IMG/VR virus record: IMGVR_UViG_3300048839_001250
Coordinates: 1 to 45,611 of that record
Reading direction: 5' to 3' (one strand)
From: a virus
Length of the DNA stretch: 45,611 bases
The notes beneath the pieces are model-generated. The model made no database searches and was not told where the DNA came from. It worked only from the letters and a program-made list of their open reading frames with translations. Positions within the stretch are counted from its first letter, which is position 1; each line of letters starts with the position of its first letter. Made by a program: the position numbers and the translations under genes. Positions 6,565-36,373 of this stretch are shown one piece after another.

Positions 6565-7181
6565 ACGCAGCCGAGCGCCGCGCCGACTACCAGGCGCGCA
6601 AGGAGTCGGGGCGGTGCATCGAGCGCCGGTGCGCCGAGGCCGCCGCGGACGGTAGCCTGCGGTGCGCGCGCCACGACGAGCTCCACCGGCACCGCCAGCG
6701 GATGGCGCGGCGGCGGCAGCGGCGCCGGCTGGCCGCGGCTGGGCTGTGCGTCGCGTGCCAGCGGCCGAGCGCGACGTACCGCTGTCCGGCGTGCCTGGTC
6801 CGGCAGGGCCTCGCACGGCTGCGCCCGACGACGAGTGTCAATGCCAGTGTCGTTGACCAGGGCAAGGGCCCGAAGGACACGTGGCGCCTCGAGCCGGGCA
6901 CGAACTGGAAGCGCTACCGCGGCCGCGCGCGCCAGGGCAGCCCGGCCGCCGCGGTGCTCGACGACCAGGACCTGGCGCAGGCGACCCGCGAGCTCGCGCG
7001 CGCCAAGGAGGCGCTCGCCTACGCCCGGTCCGCCGAGGTGCAGGCGCTCGGGTCGATCGCGCGCCGCGAGGTGCTGCGCGCCGCGCTCGGGCGGCTGGAG
7101 ATCGTCCAGCGCTGGCTCGGCGAGGTGATCGCCCGGCACCTGCGGCCGCCGAGGGCCGTGACGCGTGTCGCTGGGCCCTGA
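6561..7181 (+). CDS. Cys-rich zinc-binding protein of unknown function
   Basis: 206 residues, start in an ATGA overlap. The first 90 residues are rich in Cys, His and Arg: CIERRC, CARHDELHRHRQRMARR, CVACQRP, CPACLVRQ. This resembles the small zinc-binding DNA-associated proteins seen next to phage terminases. The second half is helical (DLAQATRELARAKEALAYAR). The middle (PTTSVNASVVDQ) comes from the second copy of the 37-bp repeat, suggesting that the DNA itself has a function here. It overlaps the terminase start by 17 bp. Function unknown; a packaging accessory role is possible. Confidence 0.6.
   Translation: MNAAERRADYQARKESGRCIERRCAEAAADGSLRCARHDELHRHRQRMARRRQRRRLAAAGLCVACQRPSATYRCPACLVRQGLARLRPTTSVNASVVDQGKGPKDTWRLEPGTNWKRYRGRARQGSPAAAVLDDQDLAQATRELARAKEALAYARSAEVQALGSIARREVLRAALGRLEIVQRWLGEVIARHLRPPRAVTRVAGP
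6825..6861 (+). repeat. 37-bp direct repeat, copy B
   Basis: Second copy of the repeat at 6514-6550, one base different, 311 bp apart and in the same orientation, inside the next gene and upstream of the large terminase. The same GTCAA / TTGAC dyad is present. Confidence 0.7.
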
Positions 7182-9756
7182 GCGGCGGCGCGAGCTGGCC
7201 GCGGGCGCGCGGGCCGAGCTCGCCCGGCGCTCGCTGATCCGGTTCGTCGAGCAGGCCTGGCCGGCGATGTCGATGGGCGTGCCGTTCGAGCCGACGTGGC
7301 ACATCGCGGCGCTGTCGCAGCACCTGCAGCGCCAGCTCGAGGACCGGGCCGCGGCGATGGCGAGCGGCGTGCCGCAGGCCGTCCACGACCTTTTGATCAA
7401 CATCCCGCCCCGGACGCTCAAGCCCTGCTGGGAGGGCGGAATCGTCGTCGAGAAGCGGCGAGGGATGATCGCGCTGCGCGATGTGTGCGTCGGGGATCAC
7501 GTGCTGACCCATGCGGGAAGGTTCCGTCGCGTGACGGCCGTGCACGAGCAAGGCGTGCTGCCCCTGTGGGAGCTGCGTACCGCGCGCGGGCGCATCGTGC
7601 GCGTCGCCGGCGACCATCCGGTGCTGACGCAGCGCGGATGGGTGCGCGCCGATCAGGTGACGACGCGCGACGTGCTCGCCGAGGTGCACGCCACCGAGGA
7701 GAGTGGGGCCGCAACGGTCGCCGCCGAGGAGGCGCGGCTCCTCGGTTACCTCATCGGCGATGGGTGCCTCTCGTGGGGCGTGAAGTTCACCAACGCCGAC
7801 CCTGAAACGCTGGATGACTTCACCGCATCGGCGGGTCGCCTCGGGTTCGCGACGTCGTCGCGGCGCGTTCGCAACACGTTCACCTTGACGCTCAAGGACC
7901 GCCCCGAGGCGAGGAAGGGCCGAGCGAGAGGCATGCTGGGGTCCGTGCGCACATGGCTGCGAGCGCACGGCCTGGACAAGACGAACAGCTACACGAAGCG
8001 CGTCCCGGCGCGCGTCAAGGCCGGCGATCGCGACGTCGTGATCGAGTACCTGGCAGCCTATTGGGCGTGCGACGGGGCGATTCACGATCGCCGCGACCTG
8101 CCTCGATCGCGCAGGGATCCGCGCAACCAAGGCACGTCGTCAGCCGTTCGCATCAGCGCGACCACGGTCAGCGAAGGACTGGCGCGCGACCATCAGGCGC
8201 TGCTCTCTCGCCTCGGCCTGTCGTTTCGGCTGCGTCGACACGAGAATCCCAAGGTCCGATCGAAGAAGCAGGACGGCGCCTACGTGTCCTGGGACCTGAA
8301 CGCCGCCGACCAGGACACCGCAGCGAAGTTCATGCAGATCATCGGCCCGCGGATGCGGCACGAGAAGCGACGGCGCGCGCCGAACCTCGAGCGGACATCC
8401 TTCGACCGCGTGCTCGTGCCCGATCCGGTGGTCAGCGCTGAGCCGCGCGGCGAGGCCTCGTGTCGCTGCTTGAGCGTAGAGAACGATCACAGCTTCGTCT
8501 ACGAGGGCGTGGCCGTGCACAACTCCACGATCCTGAGCTGCGCGACGGCGTGGGCGATGCTGCGGTGGCCGTCGATCCGGATCGGATGCCTTTCGGTCAA
8601 CCCGCGCGTCTCGTACAACAACGCGCTGCAGGTCCGCACGCTGATCCAGTCGCGGTGGTACCAGTCGCTGGAGCCGGGCTGGAAGATCCGCGACGAGCAG
8701 GGCAGCGTCAGCGCGTTCGGCACGACCGCGGGCGGCCTGCGGATGGCGCGCGGCTTCGACTCCAACGTCGTCGGCGAGGGCTTCGACTGGCTGATCGTCG
8801 ACGACCCGCACGACCCGCGCGACACCGAGTACCAGATCCAGCAGGTGCTCGACGGCTGGGACGTCGCGGTGGCGTCGCGCGTGACCGACGCCCGGTACTC
8901 GATCCGCACGTGCGTGATGCAGCGCGTGCGCGAGCTCGACTTCAGCTCGCACGTGCTCGCCCAGGGCTGGGGCCACCTGTGCCTGCCGATGGAGTTCGAG
9001 CCCGATCGCATCGTCGTGTCGCCGTACGGCTGGCGCGACCCGCGGACGACGCCGGGTGAGGTGCTGCACCCGGCGCGGTTCCCGCCGTCGGTGATCGACC
9101 AGCTCAAGCGCGAGCGGCGCTCCTACGGCTGGGCCGCGCAGTACCAGCAGCGGCCCGCGCCGATCGCCGGCGGCATCATCCAGCGCGGGTGGTTCGGGCG
9201 GTTCACGCTCGGCGAGCTGCCGAGCAAGCTCGACTGGACGACGATCAGCGTCGACGCGACGTACGGCGCCAAGAGCGAGACGGCCGACAACGTCGGGCTG
9301 CTCCTCGCCGCCGGCGCCGGCGCGCGCCGGTTCGTCCTGGCCGACGGCAGCCGGCGGATGTCGTTCCTCGAGACGATCGCGGCGATCAAGGCGTGGCTCG
9401 CCACGTTCAAGGTCGGCCGCGTGCTGATCGAGCGCGCCGCGGCGGGCGGCCCGATCGCCGAGGTCCTGCGCTCGCAGCTCGCCGCGGACCCGCACGGCGG
9501 CGGCGTGGTGGTCGAGGAGGTCCCGGTGCGCGGCAACAAGCGCGACCGGGTGATCGCCTGCCTGCCGCAGCTCGAGGCCGGCAACGTGCTGCTGCTCGAC
9601 GGCGCCGACTGGATCAACGCGTTCATCGACGAGCACGCGATCTTCCCCGCCGCGGCGCACGACGACCGCGTCGACGCGCTGTCGCAGCTGCTGATCCGGT
9701 ACGCGCCGCCGGCGCTGACCGCGCGCTCGCGCTGGGCCGCGCTGAGCCGGACGTGA
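7165..9756 (+). CDS. terL: Large terminase subunit interrupted by an intein
   Basis: 863-residue reading frame from a GTG; removing the 366-residue intein leaves 497 residues, normal for a large terminase. It packages DNA into the prohead using an ATPase and a nuclease domain. N-terminal extein: VEQAWPAMSMGVPFEPTWHI, then LLINIPPRTLKP. C-terminal extein: STILSCATAWAMLRWPSIRI, then FDWLIVDDPHD (Walker B) and, in the nuclease domain, TISVDATYG and HDDRVDALSQLL. The intein splits the P-loop region, PPRTLKP|S, a favoured site because splicing must be exact for activity. The gene lies directly after the DUF5681 and Cys-rich genes. Confidence 0.93.
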   Translation: MSLGPERRRELAAGARAELARRSLIRFVEQAWPAMSMGVPFEPTWHIAALSQHLQRQLEDRAAAMASGVPQAVHDLLINIPPRTLKPCWEGGIVVEKRRGMIALRDVCVGDHVLTHAGRFRRVTAVHEQGVLPLWELRTARGRIVRVAGDHPVLTQRGWVRADQVTTRDVLAEVHATEESGAATVAAEEARLLGYLIGDGCLSWGVKFTNADPETLDDFTASAGRLGFATSSRRVRNTFTLTLKDRPEARKGRARGMLGSVRTWLRAHGLDKTNSYTKRVPARVKAGDRDVVIEYLAAYWACDGAIHDRRDLPRSRRDPRNQGTSSAVRISATTVSEGLARDHQALLSRLGLSFRLRRHENPKVRSKKQDGAYVSWDLNAADQDTAAKFMQIIGPRMRHEKRRRAPNLERTSFDRVLVPDPVVSAEPRGEASCRCLSVENDHSFVYEGVAVHNSTILSCATAWAMLRWPSIRIGCLSVNPRVSYNNALQVRTLIQSRWYQSLEPGWKIRDEQGSVSAFGTTAGGLRMARGFDSNVVGEGFDWLIVDDPHDPRDTEYQIQQVLDGWDVAVASRVTDARYSIRTCVMQRVRELDFSSHVLAQGWGHLCLPMEFEPDRIVVSPYGWRDPRTTPGEVLHPARFPPSVIDQLKRERRSYGWAAQYQQRPAPIAGGIIQRGWFGRFTLGELPSKLDWTTISVDATYGAKSETADNVGLLLAAGAGARRFVLADGSRRMSFLETIAAIKAWLATFKVGRVLIERAAAGGPIAEVLRSQLAADPHGGGVVVEEVPVRGNKRDRVIACLPQLEAGNVLLLDGADWINAFIDEHAIFPAAAHDDRVDALSQLLIRYAPPALTARSRWAALSRT
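7426..8523 (+). other. Intein with LAGLIDADG-type homing endonuclease (366 aa)
   Basis: In-frame insertion within the large terminase. It starts with Cys (CWEGGIVVEKRRGMIALRDV, splicing block A), has VAGDHPVLTQ as block B, and ends FVYEGVAVHN before Ser, the canonical C-terminal 'HN|S'. Between them are two dodecapeptide motifs, LLGYLIGDG and YLAAYWACDG, of LAGLIDADG homing endonucleases, so it is a full mobile intein rather than a mini-intein. Codon use looks less extreme in G+C than in the flanking terminase parts, consistent with separate mobility. It should self-splice to restore the terminase. Confidence 0.93.
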
Positions 9757-9771: not shown

Positions 9772-10110
9772 CTACTTGGTGACGTCCTGGAGCACGATCC
9801 AGCGCCCGCGCGCGACCGTGACGACGACGCCGGCGACGTCCGTGACCTGGACGTCGTAGTAGTAGACGCCGGGCCCGATCGCGGCCTGCGGCGCCGACGG
9901 CGCGAACCGCACCCGCGTCGCGTCGAGGATCGACCCGGCGATCGCGAACAGCTCCGATGTGTCGTCCGGCGGGTCGGCCAGCTCGCTGACGGTGAGCACC
10001 GCGGCGCCGCCGACGAGCGTGAACCCGACGTCGGTGGACGTCACGGTCAGCGTCTCGGCGTAGGTGTCGCCTCGCACGCGCGTGATGTCGATCGCCGATG
10101 GCGCTGGCAT
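9772..10110 (-). CDS. Virion-associated beta-rich protein (baseplate/fibre type)
   Basis: 112 residues, on the opposite strand to the flanking structural genes and ending 15 bp from the terminase stop. The sequence IDITRVRGDTYAETLTV, then GVYYYDVQVTD and TVARGRWIVLQDVT, resembles the N-terminal BppU-like immunoglobulin-type domains of phage baseplate or receptor-binding proteins, where a 'R-G-D-T' turn is typical. The ATG follows a promoter-like TAGGGT by 6 nt (10117-10145), again leaderless. It probably works with the other two minus-strand proteins on the particle surface. Confidence 0.6.
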   Translation of the reverse strand: MPAPSAIDITRVRGDTYAETLTVTSTDVGFTLVGGAAVLTVSELADPPDDTSELFAIAGSILDATRVRFAPSAPQAAIGPGVYYYDVQVTDVAGVVVTVARGRWIVLQDVTK

Positions 10111-10116
10111 GGGACG

Positions 10117-10145
10117 ACCCTACGCGATCGCCGCCGCCCGGTCTG
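10117..10145 (-). promoter_or_regulatory. Promoter-like site before the 112-aa minus-strand gene
   Basis: On the minus strand: CAGACC (10145-10140), 17-nt spacer, TAGGGT (10122-10117), 6 nt, ATG at 10110. The -35 differs from TCGACC at two positions, but the -10 is closer to TAnnnT and the spacing matches the class. Confidence 0.5.
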
Positions 10146-10164
10146 GATCGGCTCGGGTGGGCGG

Positions 10165-11556
10165 TCACTCCCAGCGCGCGGTGATGGTCGGCGTCGCGAG
10201 CTGGGCGGTGACGGTCGGCGTCGCGAGCTGGGCGCTGGTGTTCCGGGGTGGCACGTAGCCGAGTGGCACGACCGTGGCCGAGGCCGAGCCGGTCACCGCG
10301 CCCAGCACGGCCGCGCCGTCGGCGCGCCGCGGGGTGCTCGCCGTCGCCGCGCCCGCGACCGGGCCGAGCGTGGCGGCGCCGTCCGAGCCGATCGGCGCTG
10401 ACGCCGCGGCCGCGCCCGTGGTCGCGCCGAGCGTGGCTGAGCCGTCGGCGGCGATCGTCGCCGACGCGGTCGCCGCGCCCGTCACCGCGCCGAGGGTCGC
10501 CGCGCCGTCCGCGCGGGTCGGATCGACGAGCGCGACGCCCGATCCCGTGACGGCCCCGAGCGTCGCGGCGCCGTCGGCGTGGACCGGCGAGCTCGCGGTC
10601 GCGGCGCCCGTAACCGCGCCGAGCTGGGCGGCGCCGTCGGCAGCGATCGGGGCGCTGGCGGTCGCGCTGCCGGTGGCGGCGCCCAGCGTGGCGGCGCCGT
10701 CGGCGCCGATCGGCGCGCTGGCAGTCGCCGCGGCCGTGACGGCCCCGAGCGTCGCGGCGCCATCTGACCCGATCGGTGCGCTCGCGGTCGCGGCGCCCGT
10801 GACCGCGCCGAGCGTTGCCGCGCCGTCGGCCGCGATCGGTGCGCTGGCCGTCGCTGCGCCCGTGACCGCGCCGAGCGTCGCGGCGCCGTCGGCGAACAGC
10901 TCGGGGTCGCCGCCAGCGACGATCGTCAGCGTCGGCATCGCCGGACTGGCGTCCGCGTCCGCCGCGAAGATCGTCAGCCGGGTTGCCCCTGCCGCGCCCG
11001 GCGTCCCCGTGCCGACCGAAGCGACGAGCGTCCACCCGCTCGGGGTCTCGAGCTCCTCGTTTGCGGTCTGGACGTACAGGATCAGGTAGAAGTTGCCGCC
11101 GTAGATCGGCTCGTCCACCACCACCGCGTCGACGCCCTGGCCCTTGGTCTGGTCGTAGACCTCGGGCGGCTGCGAGCCGTAGAGCGCGAACGACGCGAGC
11201 GCCTGGGGCAGAGCGCTGCCGATCGTGCTGGTCCACGTGCCCGACGCCCCAGCGGTCGCGCGTGTCCCGGCGCCGCTGTAGATGCCGCCGCCGTGGCCGG
11301 TGTTGCCCTGCGCCCACACGTGGAAGGCCTCGCCGGTCACGCCAGCGTCGGCGGCGGCCCATGACGTCGAGCCGCTGAAGTCGTTGCTGTCCAGCGCCGC
11401 CGCGACCATCCCGACCATCGTGCGGTTCGCGCCGAGGGAGGTCGCGCTCGGGGCGACGACGTCATCATCTGCCGAAGCAAGGGTGTCGGTGACGACGCCC
11501 TCGATCCCGTCGCAGTAGCGGTACGCGACGCAGTTGTAGATGATGTGATCAGCCAC
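10165..11556 (-). CDS. Repeat-containing adhesin/tail-fibre-like protein
   Basis: 463 residues from a GTG. The N-terminal 220 residues form a beta-rich domain (GNTGHGGGIYSGAGTRATAG, PSGWTLVASVGTG; the 'PSGWTLV' strand is common in phage surface proteins). Residues about 220-430 consist of ten tandem units of about 21 residues, consensus DGAATLGAVTGAATASAPIA. Two copies of AQLATPTVT and the end ITARWE follow. The length and Gly/Ala/Ser/Thr content suit an extended fibre or capsid decoration. It probably lies in one operon with the upstream 132-aa gene. Binding target unknown. Confidence 0.65.
   Translation of the reverse strand: MADHIIYNCVAYRYCDGIEGVVTDTLASADDDVVAPSATSLGANRTMVGMVAAALDSNDFSGSTSWAAADAGVTGEAFHVWAQGNTGHGGGIYSGAGTRATAGASGTWTSTIGSALPQALASFALYGSQPPEVYDQTKGQGVDAVVVDEPIYGGNFYLILYVQTANEELETPSGWTLVASVGTGTPGAAGATRLTIFAADADASPAMPTLTIVAGGDPELFADGAATLGAVTGAATASAPIAADGAATLGAVTGAATASAPIGSDGAATLGAVTAAATASAPIGADGAATLGAATGSATASAPIAADGAAQLGAVTGAATASSPVHADGAATLGAVTGSGVALVDPTRADGAATLGAVTGAATASATIAADGSATLGATTGAAAASAPIGSDGAATLGPVAGAATASTPRRADGAAVLGAVTGSASATVVPLGYVPPRNTSAQLATPTVTAQLATPTITARWE
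10181..10230 (-). repeat. Short tandem repeat encoding AQLATPTVT
   Basis: Two adjacent copies of about 27 bp near the 3' end of the adhesin gene, coding for AQLATPTVT and AQLATPTIT. Confidence 0.6.
10262..10897 (-). repeat. Ten 60-63-bp tandem repeats in the adhesin gene
   Basis: Each unit encodes about 21 residues with core DGAATLGAVTGAATASAP. Units differ at several bases, so the array is old enough to have diverged. Recombination could change its length. Confidence 0.8.
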
Positions 11557-11589
11557 GGACGGTCACGGCCTCGACCATGCCGTCGAGGG

Positions 11590-11988
11590 TCAGGCGTTGG
11601 CGGCGGTGTACGTGAACGTGTCGACGGTGACGGTCTGGCCCGACGCGATCGTCACGTTGTCGATGATCAGGTCGCCGCCGCCGCCGGCCGCCGTGACCGT
11701 GCCCTGGGCGCGACACGTGGTCCCGTCCGACTCGTAGAGGCGGTAGTAGTCCGCGGTGCCGCTCGCGCCCGCGGTGCCGCTCCACGTCCCGGTCTTGGCC
11801 TTGACGCCCCCCGACGCCGCGGCGAACGCTGGGTTGGGCAGCGTCATCGACACCAGCTCGGTGCCAGCGTTCGCCGCGGCGCAGTTGGCGGGGAGGCTGC
11901 CGTCGAAGATCTTGAGGACCATCGCGCCCGAGGTCTGGATCGCGTCGAGGCCGTCGTTGCGAGCGTCGACGCTGAGCTGGATCGCCAT
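11590..11988 (-). CDS. Minus-strand virion protein (132 aa)
   Basis: 132 residues, MAIQLSVDARNDGLDAIQ, then GAMVLKIFDGSLPANCAAAN and YYRLYESDGTTCRAQGTV. Small phage proteins with 'LKIFDGSxPANCAAAxxGT' are common in Caudoviricetes structural clusters and seem to be head or fibre accessory proteins. Function unproven. The ATG lies 6 nt from a -10 of the TCGACC class on the minus strand, divergent from the portal promoter, so this gene heads the three-gene minus operon. Confidence 0.6.
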   Translation of the reverse strand: MAIQLSVDARNDGLDAIQTSGAMVLKIFDGSLPANCAAANAGTELVSMTLPNPAFAAASGGVKAKTGTWSGTAGASGTADYYRLYESDGTTCRAQGTVTAAGGGGDLIIDNVTIASGQTVTVDTFTYTAANA

Positions 11989-12059: not shown

Positions 12060-13478
12060 GTGACGAAGCGAGCCCGCCGTGACGGCTGGATCAACAGCGC
12101 GAGCGGGCACGGCACGTCCCGCGACCGGCGCACGCTGACCCAGTTCGGTCTCGACGTCGTGACGGACGTCGAGGCGCTGCAGCTGTGGCGGTCCGACTGG
12201 CTCGCGGCCCGGATCATCGAGACGGTCCCGCGCGAGGCGTTCCGCCGCGGCTGGGTGCTCCGGATCGACGGCGACAAGGGCAAGGACCAGGCCGAGGGCC
12301 TCGGCGCGCGGTGCGAGGAGTTGAGGGTGGCGCAGAAGCTCTCGCTCGCGGCGCAGTACGAGCGGGCGTTCGGCGGCGGCGCGATCTACCCGGTGGTCGA
12401 CGGCGCGGCCGGCGACCTGGCGACGCCGCTCGACGAGGGCCGGATCGCGCGCGTGCGGGCGCTCCACGTGCTCGAGCCGCGCGAGTTGATGCCGGTCGCG
12501 TGGGTCAGCGACATCAACTCGCCGCACTTCGGCCAGCCGGAGCGCTGGCGGCTGCAGTCCGTCGCGAGCAGCCGCGGCGCCGCGTCGCTGGGAAGCCTCG
12601 AGATCCACGCGAGCCGGCTGATCGAGCTGCCGGGCCTGCGCGTGTCGTCGCAGATCCAGCCGGGCCAGCGCCCGGGCTGGGGCGACTCGGTGCTGAGCCG
12701 GCCGCGCCAGGTGATGGCGGACTTCGGGCTGGCGTGGGGCTCGGCCGCGACGCTGCTCGCCGACTTCGCCCAGGGCGTGCTCAACCTCGACGGGCTCAGC
12801 GAGGTGCTGGCCAGCGAGGACGGCGAGAAGCTCGTCGCGCAGCGGCTCGCCGCGCTCGACATGGCCCGCAGTTCGCTGCGGTCCATGGTCATCGACTCCA
12901 AGGACACGTTCACCCGCTCCACGACGCCGATCAGCGGGCTGTCGGACGTGCTGACGCAGTTCGCCCAGCTCGTCGCGGCCGCGGCCGACATGCCGGTGAC
13001 GGTGCTGATGGGGATGTCGCCGGCGGGCATGAACGCCACGGGCGCGTTCGACCTGCGCGCCTGGTACGACCGCATCGGCGCGGCGCAGGTCAACCACTAC
13101 CAGACGCCGCTCGAGCGCGTGCTGCGCCTGCTGATGCGGTCCGCCGACTCGCCGACCCGCGGCAAGGAGCCGGCGGTGTGGTCCGTCGAGTGGCTGCCGC
13201 TGTGGGAGCCGTCCGAGCAGGAGCGCGCGGTGACGCGCAAGACCGTCGCTGAGGCCGACAAGCTGTACATCGACGCCGGCGTCGTGTCGCCGGACGACGT
13301 GGCGCGGTCGCGGTGGCGCGGCGACACCTACTCGGCCGAGATGACGATCGACTGGGCGGCGCGCGAGGCCCAGGCCGAGCTCGACGACGAGCGGCTCGAG
13401 CTGGACGACGAAGCGCTCGCCGCGATGGGGCGCAAGCCGCGCCGCGGCGCTGACGAGGTCGTCACCGAGGAGAACTGA
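12060..13478 (+). CDS. Portal protein, DUF1073 (phage Mu gp29-like / Acb1-like N-terminal) family
   Basis: 472 residues from a GTG. The stretch LQLWRSDWLAARIIETVPREAFRRGWVLRI, AQYERAFGGGAIYPVVDGA, LEPRELMPVAW and the late PSEQERAVTRKTVAEADKLY are characteristic of DUF1073 portal proteins, where 'W-x-x-x-x-L-A-x-x-I-x-x-x-P-x-D/E-x-x-R-x-G-W' opens the conserved core. The portal forms the dodecameric ring through which DNA enters the capsid. Length is normal. It starts the main head operon, overlaps the next gene by ATGA-type coupling at 13478, and is followed by the MuF gene as expected. Confidence 0.88.
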   Translation: MTKRARRDGWINSASGHGTSRDRRTLTQFGLDVVTDVEALQLWRSDWLAARIIETVPREAFRRGWVLRIDGDKGKDQAEGLGARCEELRVAQKLSLAAQYERAFGGGAIYPVVDGAAGDLATPLDEGRIARVRALHVLEPRELMPVAWVSDINSPHFGQPERWRLQSVASSRGAASLGSLEIHASRLIELPGLRVSSQIQPGQRPGWGDSVLSRPRQVMADFGLAWGSAATLLADFAQGVLNLDGLSEVLASEDGEKLVAQRLAALDMARSSLRSMVIDSKDTFTRSTTPISGLSDVLTQFAQLVAAAADMPVTVLMGMSPAGMNATGAFDLRAWYDRIGAAQVNHYQTPLERVLRLLMRSADSPTRGKEPAVWSVEWLPLWEPSEQERAVTRKTVAEADKLYIDAGVVSPDDVARSRWRGDTYSAEMTIDWAAREAQAELDDERLELDDEALAAMGRKPRRGADEVVTEEN

Positions 13479-15343
13479 TGGCGGATCTCGCGGCGACGCT
13501 GCGGGCGAACGCGCAGCGGACCGCGGCGATCGTCGCCCACGCGCGCCGGACGGGGCAGGCGACGCGGCGCACCCGCATGCCGGCCTACCAGTGGCCGGCG
13601 CGGATCGAGGAGGACTACGCGCGCGCGATCGCCGCCGCGGCGGACGTCCGCGACGACCTCGAGCCGCTGATGCGCGCGCTGCCCGAGCTGCTGCGAGGCG
13701 CGGCGCAAGCGCTCGGCCGCGCGGACGAGGGCGAGTCGGCCCGGGCCCGGCAGCTCCTGCAGCGGGCGCGGGCCCGGCTCGAGGCCTCGCTCGGCGATCA
13801 CACCCTCGAGCCGACCACGCGCCGCTACGCGCACCGGACGCTCGCGCACCACCAGGGCCAGCTGCAGCGCCAGATGCGCGCCAAGCTCGGCGTCGACCTC
13901 CAGACGGCCGACCCGGGCGCCGCGGCGCTGGTCGAGGCCTTCGTCAGCGAGAACGTCGCGCTGATCCGCTCGCTCGGCACGCGCACGCTCGACGAGGTCG
14001 CCGCGCTCGTCACGCGCGCGTTCGGCGACGGCGCCCGGGCCGAGTCGGTCGTCGATGAGATCCAGGCGCGCTACGGGATCGCCGAGCGGCACGCCAGGCT
14101 CATCGCGCGCGACCAGGTCGGCAAGCTCAACGGCCGGATCGCCGCGGCGCGCCACCAGGAGCTCGGCATCGCCTCGTTCAAGTGGCGGTCGATGAAGGAC
14201 CAGCGCGTGCGGCCGCGCCACGTCCACCTCGACGGCCAGGTGTTCCGCTACCCCGAGGGCGCGCCCGGCGAGGGCATCCCGGGCCACCCGATCCAGTGCC
14301 GGTGCTTCCAGGAACCGGTCGTCGACGACATCCTCGCCGAGCTCGAGGCGATCGAGGCCGGCGAGGGCGGGGGCGGGGCGCCGCCGCCGGGCGCGGGCGC
14401 GCCGGGCCAGGTCGCCGCGGCGGCCGGCGCGGCGGGCGGGGCGCCGCCGGCGGGCGCGGGTGGGCCGCCGGGCGGAGGCGGGGGAAGCGATTCCCCGCCT
14501 GGGCCGAGCGGGCGACGCAGGCAGAACCCCAAGGGAGCGCCGGCCGAGGCAGTCGCTCGTCACGTCGCCGCCGGCGAGTTCGGACAGGCGCGGGAAGTAC
14601 TCCAGGACCACCTCGAGCGCGGAGGGGTCGCGCTCAACGACGAGGCGCGTGGTGCGCGGGTTGTCGAGGTCAAGCAGGATGGAATCCTTGGGCAGCACCT
14701 GAAGGACGGAACCATCGAGCTGGACCCTTCGACGGCCGAGCGTGCGCGCGACTTCGGCGATGCCTGGACGCGCGACAGGGCCAAGGTGCGGGAGAAGCTC
14801 GAGCGCGCGACTGCCCAGCGGACGAGGCGCGGCCGAAACATGGACGCCACGCCGATCGAGCGCGACGGGATGGGGATGAAGACGTTCGTCCACGAAGTGC
14901 TGCACGGCTGCGGGCCGATGCGGCACGGCGAGTACGTCGGCCGCAGCGGCACCATCGAGGAGGTGGTCACCGAGATGGCCGCGCGCGCGACGATGCGGGA
15001 CATGTACGGATGGGACATCAGGACCGGCACATACAAGCAGCGCGTCAACGACGTCGTCGATGCGCTCCGGCGCGTGCCTGGGCTTCCCGTCGATCGGAGC
15101 GACGTCACCGGTATGCTGGCGGAGGCATCGCTTTCGCTCAAGGGTGACCCCCGCCCGGAACCTGGCGTCATGGGGCTCACGATGACGGACCGGTTGGCGC
15201 GCCACATCGCCGCAGCGCGACCATCCAGCGATGGCAACGCCAACGTCGTCGGTGTATCGTTCCCGGATGGACAGCCCGCGACGCCACACGAGCTCGCGAT
15301 CGCCAGCGCGATCCGACGCGCCGTCCCAGGCCTCGACCGATAA
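13478..15343 (+). CDS. MuF head-morphogenesis protein fused to a zincin metallopeptidase domain
   Basis: 621 residues. Residues 1-290 form the MuF (SPP1 gp7-like) domain, a minor head protein injected or packaged with the capsid, ending in the typical FKWRSMKDQRVRPRHVHLDG, GHPIQCRCF. A Gly/Pro-rich linker (about 295-350) leads to a new C-terminal domain with KTFVHEVLHGCGP: an HExxH zinc site (His-Glu-x-x-His) with a downstream EEVVTEMAAR supplying a third acidic ligand. MuF proteins carrying C-terminal toxin domains are a known class of phage polymorphic toxin, and the small gene after this one sits where an immunity gene would be. A simple internal head protease is the alternative. Confidence 0.8.
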   Translation: MADLAATLRANAQRTAAIVAHARRTGQATRRTRMPAYQWPARIEEDYARAIAAAADVRDDLEPLMRALPELLRGAAQALGRADEGESARARQLLQRARARLEASLGDHTLEPTTRRYAHRTLAHHQGQLQRQMRAKLGVDLQTADPGAAALVEAFVSENVALIRSLGTRTLDEVAALVTRAFGDGARAESVVDEIQARYGIAERHARLIARDQVGKLNGRIAAARHQELGIASFKWRSMKDQRVRPRHVHLDGQVFRYPEGAPGEGIPGHPIQCRCFQEPVVDDILAELEAIEAGEGGGGAPPPGAGAPGQVAAAAGAAGGAPPAGAGGPPGGGGGSDSPPGPSGRRRQNPKGAPAEAVARHVAAGEFGQAREVLQDHLERGGVALNDEARGARVVEVKQDGILGQHLKDGTIELDPSTAERARDFGDAWTRDRAKVREKLERATAQRTRRGRNMDATPIERDGMGMKTFVHEVLHGCGPMRHGEYVGRSGTIEEVVTEMAARATMRDMYGWDIRTGTYKQRVNDVVDALRRVPGLPVDRSDVTGMLAEASLSLKGDPRPEPGVMGLTMTDRLARHIAAARPSSDGNANVVGVSFPDGQPATPHELAIASAIRRAVPGLDR

Positions 15344-15344
15344 C

Positions 15345-15590
15345 GTGTTCAACGTCACCCCTTCGGTCGCGTCGTACGTCGCCTTCTACCAGCAGCACGG
15401 TGCCATCAGCAGCGACGAGGGCGAGATCATGATGAACTCCCTCTCGCGCCACGTGGACGACGTTGCCGTCAGGGAGCTCCAGGCGATCATCCGGCGCGAC
15501 AAGTGGGTCATCTGGGACGCTGGCGACGACGCGGCTGACCGCCGCCACTTGGCGGCTCGGCGCCGCCGCGCCCGCAGCGTCGCGGCCTGA
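15345..15590 (+). CDS. Small protein after the MuF-metallopeptidase gene, candidate immunity protein
   Basis: 81 residues from a GTG one base after the preceding stop; upstream in-frame starts at 15231 and 15267 exist but would add Ser/Arg-rich residues that look like out-of-frame coding. Sequence: VFNVTPSVASYVAFYQQHGA, then EGEIMMNSLSRHVDDVAV and RRDKWVIWDAGDDAAD. No family recognised. Position directly after a MuF protein with an added catalytic domain suggests a cognate immunity or chaperone function. No ribosome binding site is clear, so translation may be coupled to the upstream gene. Confidence 0.55.
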   Translation: MFNVTPSVASYVAFYQQHGAISSDEGEIMMNSLSRHVDDVAVRELQAIIRRDKWVIWDAGDDAADRRHLAARRRRARSVAA

Positions 15591-15626: not shown

Positions 15627-16757
15627 ATGGCCCGCGCGTTTCGCCTCGACCACGGCAACCTCCGCTCGCCCCAGCGCACGCCGCAGGGGTTCCTCCGCGT
15701 CGACGGCTACGCGAGCCGGGTCGGCGTGTTCGAGTACCGCAACCCCGACGGGACGACGCGGCGCGAGCTGCGGCTACCGGAGGAGGTGTTCCGCGCCGAC
15801 GCGCTCGCCGGGTTCGAGGGCGCGCCGCTGACGCACGGCCACCCGTCCGAGCCGGTCACCGCCGCCAACGTGCGGCGCTACGAGGTCGGCACCGTCACCG
15901 GGCCGGCGCGGCGCGACGGCGACCACGTCGCCGCGTCGATCGTCGTGAAGGACCCGGCCGTCATCGCCGCGCTCGAGCACGGCGCCACCGGGCTGTCGGT
16001 CGGCTACGACGTCGACCTCGACGACTCGCCCGGCGTGCACCCGCAGTGGGGCCGCTACGACGCGATCCAGCGCAACATCGTCGTCAACCACCTCGCCGTC
16101 GGTGTCGACCCCCGCGCGGGCCACACCGCGCGCGTGCGGATGGACGCCGCGGAGCAGGTCGTGCAGACGTCTGCACGCGAGGATCTCGACCGCTCGGACG
16201 CGCCGCCCGAGCATGGCGACATGAAGACCGACAAGCAGCGTGCCGACGAGGCCGAGGCGATGGTCGCGACGCTCCGCGCCGAGGTCACCCGGCTCGAGGG
16301 GCTCGTCGCGTCCGGCGCCACGGCCGCCGAGTCCGAGGCCATCCAGCGCGAGCGCACCCGCGCGGACGCCGCCGAGTCGCAGGTGTCGCGGTTCGGCGAG
16401 CTGCTCGAGCGGCGCGCCGACGAGCGCGCCAAGCTGCGCCTGGAGGCGCGTGCGATCCTCGGCGAGGCGTTCCGCGCCGACTCGCTCACCGACCGGCAGA
16501 TCCAGGAGGCGGTCATCAAGCGCCTCGACAGCTCGGTCGACGTCCGCAGCGAGAACGACGACCAGGTCCGCGGCCGGTACGTGACGCTCGTCGAGCTCCA
16601 CGGCCGCAACGCCACGAACCAGGCGCGCGTCGGCGACATCCTGGCCAAGCAGCGCACCGACAGCGGCGCGCCGACCTCCGTGGCGCCCAACGCCTACGAG
16701 GACCACGTCAACAACGCCTGGCGCAAGACCCTCAACCCCGACCACGGGAAGGCCTGA
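15627..16757 (+). CDS. DUF2213 prohead protease with C-terminal scaffold domain
   Basis: 376 residues. Residues 1-180 match DUF2213: FLRVDGYASRVGVFEYRNPDG, the motif LTHGHPSEPVTAANV, and IVVNHLAVGVDPRAG with a conserved His and Gly. The family is a prohead protease related to the serine-type assembly proteases, which cut scaffold and capsid during maturation. Residues 200-300 are highly charged and predicted coiled coil (RADEAEAMVATLRAEVTRLE), a scaffolding domain. Within the gene a promoter-like site and an ATG at 16221 would make the scaffold alone. A 16-bp palindrome (16161-16176) lies between the two domains. Confidence 0.82.
   Translation: MARAFRLDHGNLRSPQRTPQGFLRVDGYASRVGVFEYRNPDGTTRRELRLPEEVFRADALAGFEGAPLTHGHPSEPVTAANVRRYEVGTVTGPARRDGDHVAASIVVKDPAVIAALEHGATGLSVGYDVDLDDSPGVHPQWGRYDAIQRNIVVNHLAVGVDPRAGHTARVRMDAAEQVVQTSAREDLDRSDAPPEHGDMKTDKQRADEAEAMVATLRAEVTRLEGLVASGATAAESEAIQRERTRADAAESQVSRFGELLERRADERAKLRLEARAILGEAFRADSLTDRQIQEAVIKRLDSSVDVRSENDDQVRGRYVTLVELHGRNATNQARVGDILAKQRTDSGAPTSVAPNAYEDHVNNAWRKTLNPDHGKA
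16161..16176. promoter_or_regulatory. 16-bp palindrome copy 2
   Basis: Perfect GTGCAGACGTCTGCAC, inside the protease coding region. It ends 9 bp before the -35 of the internal promoter at 16186-16214, a position where a bound protein could activate or block it. Confidence 0.75.
16186..16214 (+). promoter_or_regulatory. Internal TCGACC-class promoter for a free scaffold protein
   Basis: TCGACC (16186-16191), 17 nt, GAGCAT (16209-16214), GGCGAC, ATG at 16221, in frame with the protease gene. It lies wholly inside coding sequence. Confidence 0.65.
16221..16757 (+). CDS. Scaffolding protein from internal start (178 aa)
   Basis: In-frame internal start MKTDKQRADEAEAMVATLRA giving the coiled-coil part of the protease-scaffold protein alone. 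Phages such as lambda (C/Nu3) make a free scaffold from inside the protease gene in the same way. Here the support is a promoter-like site with leaderless spacing right before this ATG, and the domain boundary at the same point. The protein would fill the prohead interior and be cut out on maturation. Confidence 0.65.
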   Translation: MKTDKQRADEAEAMVATLRAEVTRLEGLVASGATAAESEAIQRERTRADAAESQVSRFGELLERRADERAKLRLEARAILGEAFRADSLTDRQIQEAVIKRLDSSVDVRSENDDQVRGRYVTLVELHGRNATNQARVGDILAKQRTDSGAPTSVAPNAYEDHVNNAWRKTLNPDHGKA

Positions 16758-35086: not shown

Positions 35087-36373
35087 CTACCCGGTGCTCT
35101 TGAGGATTCGCAAGCGATCACGGATCGTTGCGACGCGTGCGGGGCGCTCTGAAAATCCGCGTGTCGGCGGTTCAACTCCGTCCCTGGGCACGACGACTTC
35201 CGCGAGATCCTTGGAGATTCGGCCCTCGCCGCGAGTCTCAGGAGTCTCTCCAGTAGCACCGCGTGCGCCTGTGTCTTGCACACCCGTTGCACACGAGGTC
35301 GCCGCCGCGAGCCAGCCCGCGCGCGCGGACATCGCGTCGATCGCGTCCTGGTAGTTCGAGGTCGCGAGGTGGCCGTAGACGCGCTCGACCATCCGCGTGC
35401 TGGTGTGCCCGAGCAGCCGCGCGACGACGTAGAGCGGCACGCCGGCCTGCACGAGCCAGCTCGCGTAGGTCCGCCGCAGGTCGTTGGGCGAGATCGGGTC
35501 GCGCCTCGGGTACGGCGCCGCGCCGTTCGGCTGCCGCACGCGCGCGCCGTGCAGCCCGCGATCGAGCGCCGCGGTGAGGTCGCGGTCCACGTTGCTCCAC
35601 GTCTCGACGACCAGGTCGTCACCGGTCGCGCCGCGCGCCGCCGCGAGCTCGGCCGCCTCAGCGAGCAGCGTCGCGAGCGGCGGCGGGATCGGGACCATCC
35701 GGTGCGCGCCCTCCGTCTTGGTACCGTCGACGCGGATCCAGCCGCGCTCGCGGTCGACGCGGCCCCAGCGCAGGCGCTCGACCTCGGAGTCGCGCAGCCC
35801 GGCGTACAGCGCGATCGCGGCCCACAGCCGGCGGTGCGGCCGCAGCGCGGCGAGCATCGCGTCCGCCTCGTGGTGCGTCAGCCAGCGGTCGCGCGGCCGG
35901 TACTGCTGCTTCACCTTCGGGATGACGGCGCCCGGGTTGCCCGTCCACACGCCGCGATCGATCGCGACCTTGAGCGCGCGCCGCAGCACGACGAGCTCCT
36001 TGTAGATCGTCGACGGGTGCGCGCCCTCGTCGACGCGCGTCGTGACGTAGCTGGTCGTCCGGTCGCGCGAGACGTCGGCGAGCCGCAGGTCCTGGCCGAG
36101 GAGCCGCTCGAGGTGCCGCGCCTTCTGCTGGTAGCTGCCGATCGTCGCCGCCGCGGCGTGCTCGGCGACCATCGCGCGGAACAGGTGGTCGAGCGCCGCG
36201 CCTAGCGTGTGCGTCGAGTACGCGGCTGGATCGGCCGTCGCCAGCTCGAGCTCGCGGAGTCGGGCGGCGGCGACGCGGCCGTCCTTGGTGCCGAGCGATC
36301 GCCGGTGGTGCGTGCCGCGCGTGTCCGTCCAGTACGCGTGATAGGTGTCCCCACGACGGTAGATGCGTCCCAC
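35087..36373 (-). CDS. int: Tyrosine-family integrase
   Basis: 428 residues from a GTG with GGAG upstream. N-terminal MGRIYRRGDTYHAYWTDTRG is typical. Catalytic blocks: Arg194 (ALYAGLRDSEVERLRW), Lys219 (GTKT), NDLRR at 297-301 with Arg300, LGH at 321-323, and nucleophile Tyr333 (ERVYGHL). The first position of the usual H-x-x-R box is Asn297. It joins phage and host DNA at attP/attB. The last 50 codons overlap the attP core, so integration replaces the 3' end of the gene with host DNA. The peptide VVPRDGVEPPTRGFS there is tRNA-gene antisense. Confidence 0.92.
   Translation of the reverse strand: MGRIYRRGDTYHAYWTDTRGTHHRRSLGTKDGRVAAARLRELELATADPAAYSTHTLGAALDHLFRAMVAEHAAAATIGSYQQKARHLERLLGQDLRLADVSRDRTTSYVTTRVDEGAHPSTIYKELVVLRRALKVAIDRGVWTGNPGAVIPKVKQQYRPRDRWLTHHEADAMLAALRPHRRLWAAIALYAGLRDSEVERLRWGRVDRERGWIRVDGTKTEGAHRMVPIPPPLATLLAEAAELAAARGATGDDLVVETWSNVDRDLTAALDRGLHGARVRQPNGAAPYPRRDPISPNDLRRTYASWLVQAGVPLYVVARLLGHTSTRMVERVYGHLATSNYQDAIDAMSARAGWLAAATSCATGVQDTGARGATGETPETRGEGRISKDLAEVVVPRDGVEPPTRGFSERPARVATIRDRLRILKSTG
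35149..35190 (+). other. attP: attP core: 3' half of tRNA-Phe(GAA)
   Basis: Plus strand reads an anticodon loop CTGAAAA (anticodon GAA), the variable region GTGTC, a T arm GGCGG-TTCAACT-CCGTC, and an acceptor strand CCTGGGC with discriminator A. The 5' half of a tRNA is absent and the left anticodon stem does not pair fully, so this is a partial tRNA copied from attB. Integration would rebuild the host tRNA-Phe, whose 5' end is predicted to read GCCCAGG. Confidence 0.82.
35277..35293 (+). repeat. Arm-type integrase site, right (17 bp)
   Basis: Second copy of TGCACACCCGTTGCACA, inside the 3' part of the integrase gene. Confidence 0.7.

What the first reader, a model, noticed from the sequence alone, without database searches (positions are those of the whole stretch)
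13478..15590. MuF protein with HExxH metallopeptidase tail and a candidate immunity gene
The C-terminal domain has HEVLH and a downstream E-rich helix of a zincin and is joined by a low-complexity linker, followed at once by an 81-aa gene. MuF polymorphic toxins are described mainly for other effector domains; a metallopeptidase version with its partner in a small myovirus of a Gram-negative host would be new to me. The enzyme could instead act in head maturation or be injected into the host.
Basis: partly seen in the sequence, partly recalled or inferred. Interest (0 to 1): 0.72.

Follow-up and report, generated by a model that had tools for sequence, protein, structure and literature searches.

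The report
Phage-head protease toxin with partner gene
This phage fuses a predicted zinc-protease tail to a protein of its DNA-filled head and follows it with a small partner gene; the same pair recurs on differently built heads of other phages, which is what a protease carried into bacteria plus its own antidote would look like, although nothing has been tested at the bench.

Summary
The 621-aa gene has a MuF domain, an Ala/Gly/Pro linker and a C-terminal domain with HEVLH472-476 and EEVVTE494-499; an 81-aa gene starts 1 base after its stop. The tail has no Pfam, PHROG, NCBIfam, PADLOC, PDB, isolated-phage or plasmid match, but IMG/VR yielded 15 further non-redundant carriers. Across all 16, H472, E473, H476, E495, E499 and Y519 are invariant. 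The tail sits on at least two MuF types and on a portal protein, and the window's nearest head relatives lack it. A family of 54-84-aa genes lies next to the tail in 12 of the 15 others, once on the opposite strand; the window's 81-aa gene is a diverged relative (E = 3e-5 to the partner of its closest tail). A search with that small family alone returned only tail carriers, and no MuF locus without this tail has it. This is a mobile two-gene module, best read as a capsid-delivered zinc peptidase with its cognate inhibitor or immunity protein. It is not the head-maturation protease, a separate gene downstream. MuF toxins with metallopeptidase tails are already known, so the class is not new; this protease family and its partner appear to be. 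Toxicity, cleavage and inhibition are untested.

The parts
12060..13478 (+). portal protein (472 aa)
   Evidence: PF06381 1.5e-81, PHROG 146
13478..15343 (+). MuF-zincin gene, 621 aa
13994..14308 (+). MuF domain (aa 173-277)
   Evidence: PF04233 4.2e-18; PHROG 324
14371..14512 (+). Ala/Gly/Pro linker, 92% GC
   Evidence: sequence
14513..15340 (+). zincin-like tail (aa 346-621); GC3 0.83 against at least 0.92 in every equal-sized window of the other late genes
   Evidence: 15 other carriers; AF2 pLDDT 81.7, pTM 0.81; GC3
14891..14905 (+). HEVLH (aa 472-476), predicted zinc ligands and catalytic Glu
   Evidence: H, E, H invariant in 16 of 16
14957..14974 (+). EEVVTE (aa 494-499); E495 or E499 is the likely third zinc ligand
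   Evidence: E495 and E499 invariant in 16 of 16
15345..15590 (+). 81-aa partner gene (GTG start), candidate inhibitor/immunity protein
   Evidence: position; similarity to the L122 partner; partner family restricted to tail carriers
15627..16757 (+). separate head-maturation protease (DUF2213)
   Evidence: PF09979 2e-37, PHROG 530 1.2e-80
35087..36373 (-). integrase: phage is probably temperate
   Evidence: PHROG 1, 3.5e-57

Best explanation
A two-gene effector module carried by the phage head. The MuF domain places the protein at the portal inside the capsid; the C-terminal domain is a gluzincin-type zinc peptidase that travels in the virion and acts on host (or rival-element) proteins after ejection. 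The small gene after it makes a protein that binds and restrains the peptidase in the producing cell, as an immunity protein or inhibitor. Shown by computation: the architecture, the conserved metal-site pattern, a tail that is optional and moves between head types, and a partner family exclusive to this tail. Inferred: virion location (from MuF knowledge), proteolysis, host target, and that the partner inhibits.
For: Catalytic pattern invariant in 16 divergent carriers. AF2 topology helix - 3 short strands - helix with HExxH - helix with EExxxE, the order given for zincin metallopeptidases in PMC5512222. The tail is optional: nearest heads, 40-42% identical (L021-L024), have tails of 6-9 aa, and other phages with the same head type carry instead an ADP-ribosyltransferase (L010) or an alarmone-synthetase-like tail next to an HD hydrolase gene (L020, the synthetase reading is mine). 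Tail and head have separate histories: closest tail L122 (1e-31) is on an unrelated head (E = 0.047), while the closest zincin-bearing head L110 (1e-51) has a distant tail. The module also sits on other MuF types and on a portal. GC3 drops at the linker. Partner next to the tail in 12 of the 15 others plus the window; a search with the partner alone finds only tail carriers, three of them new; no partner in MuF loci without this tail among 13,478 ORFs; in L110 it is kept on the opposite strand.
Against: No wet evidence. No sequence or Foldseek match to a solved peptidase (the one zinc-metalloproteinase line has E = 2.3), so the fold class rests on motif and predicted topology. The window's 81-aa protein matches the partner family only through L122; the family HMM does not recognise it, and L102, L113 and L116 have no detectable partner. 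No known immunity fold is recognised, and a chaperone would show the same genomic pattern. Integrases or recombinases were found in only 4 of 13 other carrier records tested, so lysogen immunity may not be its general purpose, although those records may be fragments.
Confidence: 0.6

Rival explanations
1. The tail is an autoprocessing or assembly protease: it cuts the MuF protein or another head protein during packaging or ejection, and the small gene is its chaperone or timing inhibitor.
For: Metallopeptidases in phage polyvalent proteins are proposed to autoprocess before packaging (P1 DdrB; PMC5512222). The tail ends the protein and lies among late head genes.
Against: The tail is absent from the nearest head relatives and is found on unrelated heads and on portals, so it has no fixed head substrate; in the window no further effector domain lies behind it to be released.
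Confidence: 0.22
2. It is the phage's head-maturation protease.
For: Encoded among head genes; PHROG 595, labelled head maturation protease, matches the MuF part.
Against: The PHROG 595 match covers the MuF domain, not the tail. A dedicated DUF2213 head-maturation protease follows at 15627, and relatives without the tail keep that gene.
Confidence: 0.03
3. The effector acts in phage-host or phage-phage conflict (anti-defence, superinfection, lysis-lysogeny choice) instead of as a growth-inhibiting toxin, and the partner only protects phage proteins late in infection.
For: Jamet et al. propose that weakly toxic MuF peptidases tune the lysis-lysogeny decision. Many carrier records have no detected integrase.
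Against: No target evidence; it differs from the best explanation only in the target.
Confidence: 0.15

Closest known systems
MuF polymorphic toxins (Jamet et al. 2017, PMC5576092)
   Same: MuF head plus exchangeable C-terminal domain, a small ORF directly downstream, a phage with an integrase; 20% of their 191 MuF toxins carry a metallopeptidase domain
   Different: This metallopeptidase family matches no Pfam, PHROG or NCBIfam model; the partner is a defined family tied to it; the tail also occurs on portal proteins
Zincin-like MPTases of phage polyvalent proteins (Iyer et al. 2017, PMC5512222; PF18818)
   Same: HExxH on one helix, Glu on the next, preceded by three strands; fused to virion proteins
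   Different: Not recognised by PF18818; end of a MuF or portal protein, with a dedicated small partner gene
Bxa-Bsi/BAH of a Bacteroides stercoris prophage (PMC11699363)
   Same: MuF-fused antibacterial toxin with adjacent immunity genes in a Gram-negative host, tested experimentally
   Different: ADP-ribosyltransferase, unrelated immunity proteins
Tox-MPTase and other metallopeptidase toxins of polymorphic toxin systems (PMC3482391)
   Same: Zincin-type C-terminal toxin domain with HExxH
   Different: No Pfam match of this tail to any of them at E up to 1

Membership tests
MuF polymorphic toxins | N-terminal MuF domain | tested here: met
   PF04233 4e-18
MuF polymorphic toxins | C-terminal domains exchange on a common head | tested here: met
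   none / ADP-ribosyltransferase / alarmone-synthetase-like / several kinds of HExxH or HExxxH tail on PHROG-324-type heads
MuF polymorphic toxins | C-terminal domain homologous to a known toxin domain | tested here: not met
   no Pfam, NCBIfam or PADLOC match for the window tail
MuF polymorphic toxins | small ORF (<150 aa) directly downstream, rare after short MuF genes | tested here: met
   81 aa, 1 base after the stop; most short MuF relatives have none
MuF polymorphic toxins | temperate phage | tested here: met
   integrase in the window; integrase or recombinase in 4 of 13 other carrier records
MuF polymorphic toxins | toxic, neutralised by the downstream gene | not testable with these tools
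   needs expression experiments
Zincin metallopeptidases | HExxH plus downstream Glu ligand, conserved | tested here: met
   H472, E473, H476, E495, E499 invariant in 16
Zincin metallopeptidases | three-stranded sheet, HExxH helix, Glu helix | tested here: inconclusive
   AF2 topology agrees, but Foldseek against PDB gives nothing significant
MPTase-PolyVal (PF18818) | match to the Pfam model | tested here: not met
   (Pfam, E up to 1); no match in the window (where the control genomes also gave none)
Head-maturation protease | kept in all related phages | tested here: not met
   nearest head relatives lack the tail; separate DUF2213 gene

The most novel reading that the evidence does not exclude
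A previously undescribed family of virion-delivered zinc-peptidase effectors with its own inhibitor family, moving as a two-gene cassette between unrelated capsid platforms (at least two MuF types and the portal itself), in phages both with and without a detected integrase, so that the inhibitor serves the producing infection and not only lysogen immunity.
Probability: 0.5. Interest if true: 0.72.

Novelty: new variant of a known kind. Interest (0 to 1): 0.6.

Why it matters
MuF toxins were catalogued through known toxin domains, and the C-terminal extensions common in proteobacterial phages were left as 'unknown domain' (PMC5576092). Here one such extension is resolved into a predicted protease family with a reciprocal partner gene, which gives a cheap and direct test (express the tail with and without the partner) of whether phage heads deliver proteases to bacteria.

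Tried and rejected
Direct searches with the window tail, its core or its MuF head found nothing in viral or genome contigs, isolated phages or plasmids; relatives appeared only after surveying MuF heads with an alignment and spotting L079. The AF2 single-sequence model was unusable (pLDDT 43). The weak Klebsiella-phage match of the 81-aa protein (E about 0.9 and above) was rejected: no significance, and it lies kilobases from the portal gene of those phages. That any downstream small gene means immunity was rejected: similar small genes with a C..C and FPxGIP motif follow unlike tails in L039, L052 and L074. Profile comparison with the other HExxH tails (L063, L074) gave nothing (two-sequence profile, so inconclusive).

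Full report
OBSERVATION. The window is a virus record of 45,611 bases. Gene 13478-15343 encodes 621 aa with a MuF domain (PF04233 4e-18; PHROG 324 5e-59), a linker of 92% GC (14371-14512) and a tail with HEVLH (aa 472-476) and EEVVTE (aa 494-499). An 81-aa GTG-start frame begins 1 base after the stop. Portal (12060) and a DUF2213 head-maturation protease (15627) flank it; an integrase lies at 35087-36373.

THE TAIL BELONGS TO AN UNDESCRIBED FAMILY. Alone it has no match in Pfam, PHROGs, phages or plasmids and no significant one in PDB sequences. A survey of MuF heads in IMG/VR and isolated phages gave 94 MuF ORFs; among the long ones, L079 carried a similar tail (BLAST 7e-8). Alignment-based searches then found L101-L104, L106-L118 and, through the partner, L122, L123/L124 and L127. 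Counting near-identical or close loci once, there are 16 carriers including the window (window, L079, L101, L102, L106, L107, L110, L111, L112, L113, L114, L116, L117, L122, L123, L127). Identity to the window tail is 19-33%, with H472, E473, H476, E495, E499 and Y519 invariant. The family matches no PHROG, and only isolated, inconsistent single-member matches appeared in Pfam and NCBIfam. With a 15-row alignment AF2 reaches pLDDT 81.7, pTM 0.81: helix, three short strands, helices, a helix ending in HExxH, a helix with EExxxE, the order given for zincins in PMC5512222. Foldseek gives no significant PDB match; the best viral one is an uncharacterised siphovirus protein (E = 0.02).

THE TAIL IS MODULAR. 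Nearest heads (40-42% identity; L021-L024) stop 6-9 aa after the MuF domain. Other heads of this type end in an ADP-ribosyltransferase (L010, PF03496), an alarmone-synthetase-like domain followed by an HD hydrolase gene (L020; the synthetase reading is mine) or other HExxH/HExxxH domains (L063, L074, L039). The window tail is closest to that of L122 (1e-31, 32% over 277 aa), whose head is unrelated by BLAST (E = 0.047), while the head is closest, among tail carriers, to L110 (1e-51), whose tail is distant. In L113 and L116 the tail is fused to a portal protein. Third-position GC is 0.98 in the head, 0.83 in the tail, and never below 0.92 in equal-sized windows of the other late genes, which fits late acquisition at the linker.

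THE PARTNER IS SPECIFIC. Small genes beside the tail share an (E/P/T)RND...LLMLQDD pattern; L079 joins by HMM (0 of 500 shuffles reach its score) and L111 through L079 (3e-5). In L110 the partner is on the opposite strand, convergent with the tail gene. A search of IMG/VR with the partner alone returned ten loci, all with this tail directly upstream, including three carriers not known before. Over 13,478 ORFs of all loci the partner HMM finds nothing outside tail carriers (positives were partly used for training, so the negatives are the informative part). The window's 81-aa protein is not recognised by the HMM, but it matches the partner of its closest tail relative (L122; E = 3e-5; 2 of 5000 shuffles). 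L102, L113 and L116 lack a detectable partner. More generally, short MuF genes in the survey mostly have no gene before the protease, while long-tailed ones mostly do, as Jamet et al. report (89% against 26%).

MECHANISM. Most likely the tail is a zinc peptidase carried at the portal inside the capsid and released with the DNA, and the partner blocks it in the producing cell. Delivery is inferred from MuF biology (PMC5576092, PMC5512222). Head maturation is contradicted by the optional tail and the separate protease; autoprocessing with a chaperone remains the main rival.

KNOWN AND NEW. MuF toxins with metallopeptidase domains and downstream small ORFs are published, and a MuF toxin-immunity system has been tested in Bacteroides. 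New here, as far as the held libraries show: this protease family, its partner family, their reciprocal linkage, and the portal fusions.

Noticed in passing
window 7165-9756 (+): Large terminase interrupted in frame by an intein with LAGLIDADG homing-endonuclease matches (PF14528, PF14890).
   Followed up: partly
window 9772-11988 (-): Three opposite-strand genes between terminase and portal; the 463-aa one is built of imperfect 63-base (21-aa) repeats, about 9.7 copies.
   Followed up: partly
L015:2728-5127 and L099:2917-4779: Intein-like insertions in the MuF protein at its conserved cysteine motif (PF14890 match in L015, Haemophilus phage Aaphi23; L099 by eye).
   Followed up: no
L113:1571-4399, L116:60-2042: Portal proteins fused to the same zincin tail, with no MuF match; a P-loop kinase-like gene is read downstream, and a similar P-loop segment is embedded in the MuF protein of L102.
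   Followed up: partly
L110:4392-4652 (-): Partner gene inverted relative to the zincin gene, so it probably has its own promoter.
   Followed up: partly
L039, L052, L074 downstream of MuF: Similar small genes with C..C and FPxGIP motifs follow three MuF genes with unlike tails, so a downstream small gene is not by itself evidence of immunity.
   Followed up: partly
L016:3621-4994: 457-aa gene annotated as HEPN-domain protein between a short MuF gene and the protease in Acinetobacter phage vB_AbaSI_5.
   Followed up: no
carrier records of L101, L107, L112, L114, L117, L118 and others: No tyrosine integrase, serine recombinase or rve transposase detected in 9 of 13 carrier records, against the published restriction of MuF toxins to temperate phages; the records may be fragments.
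   Followed up: partly
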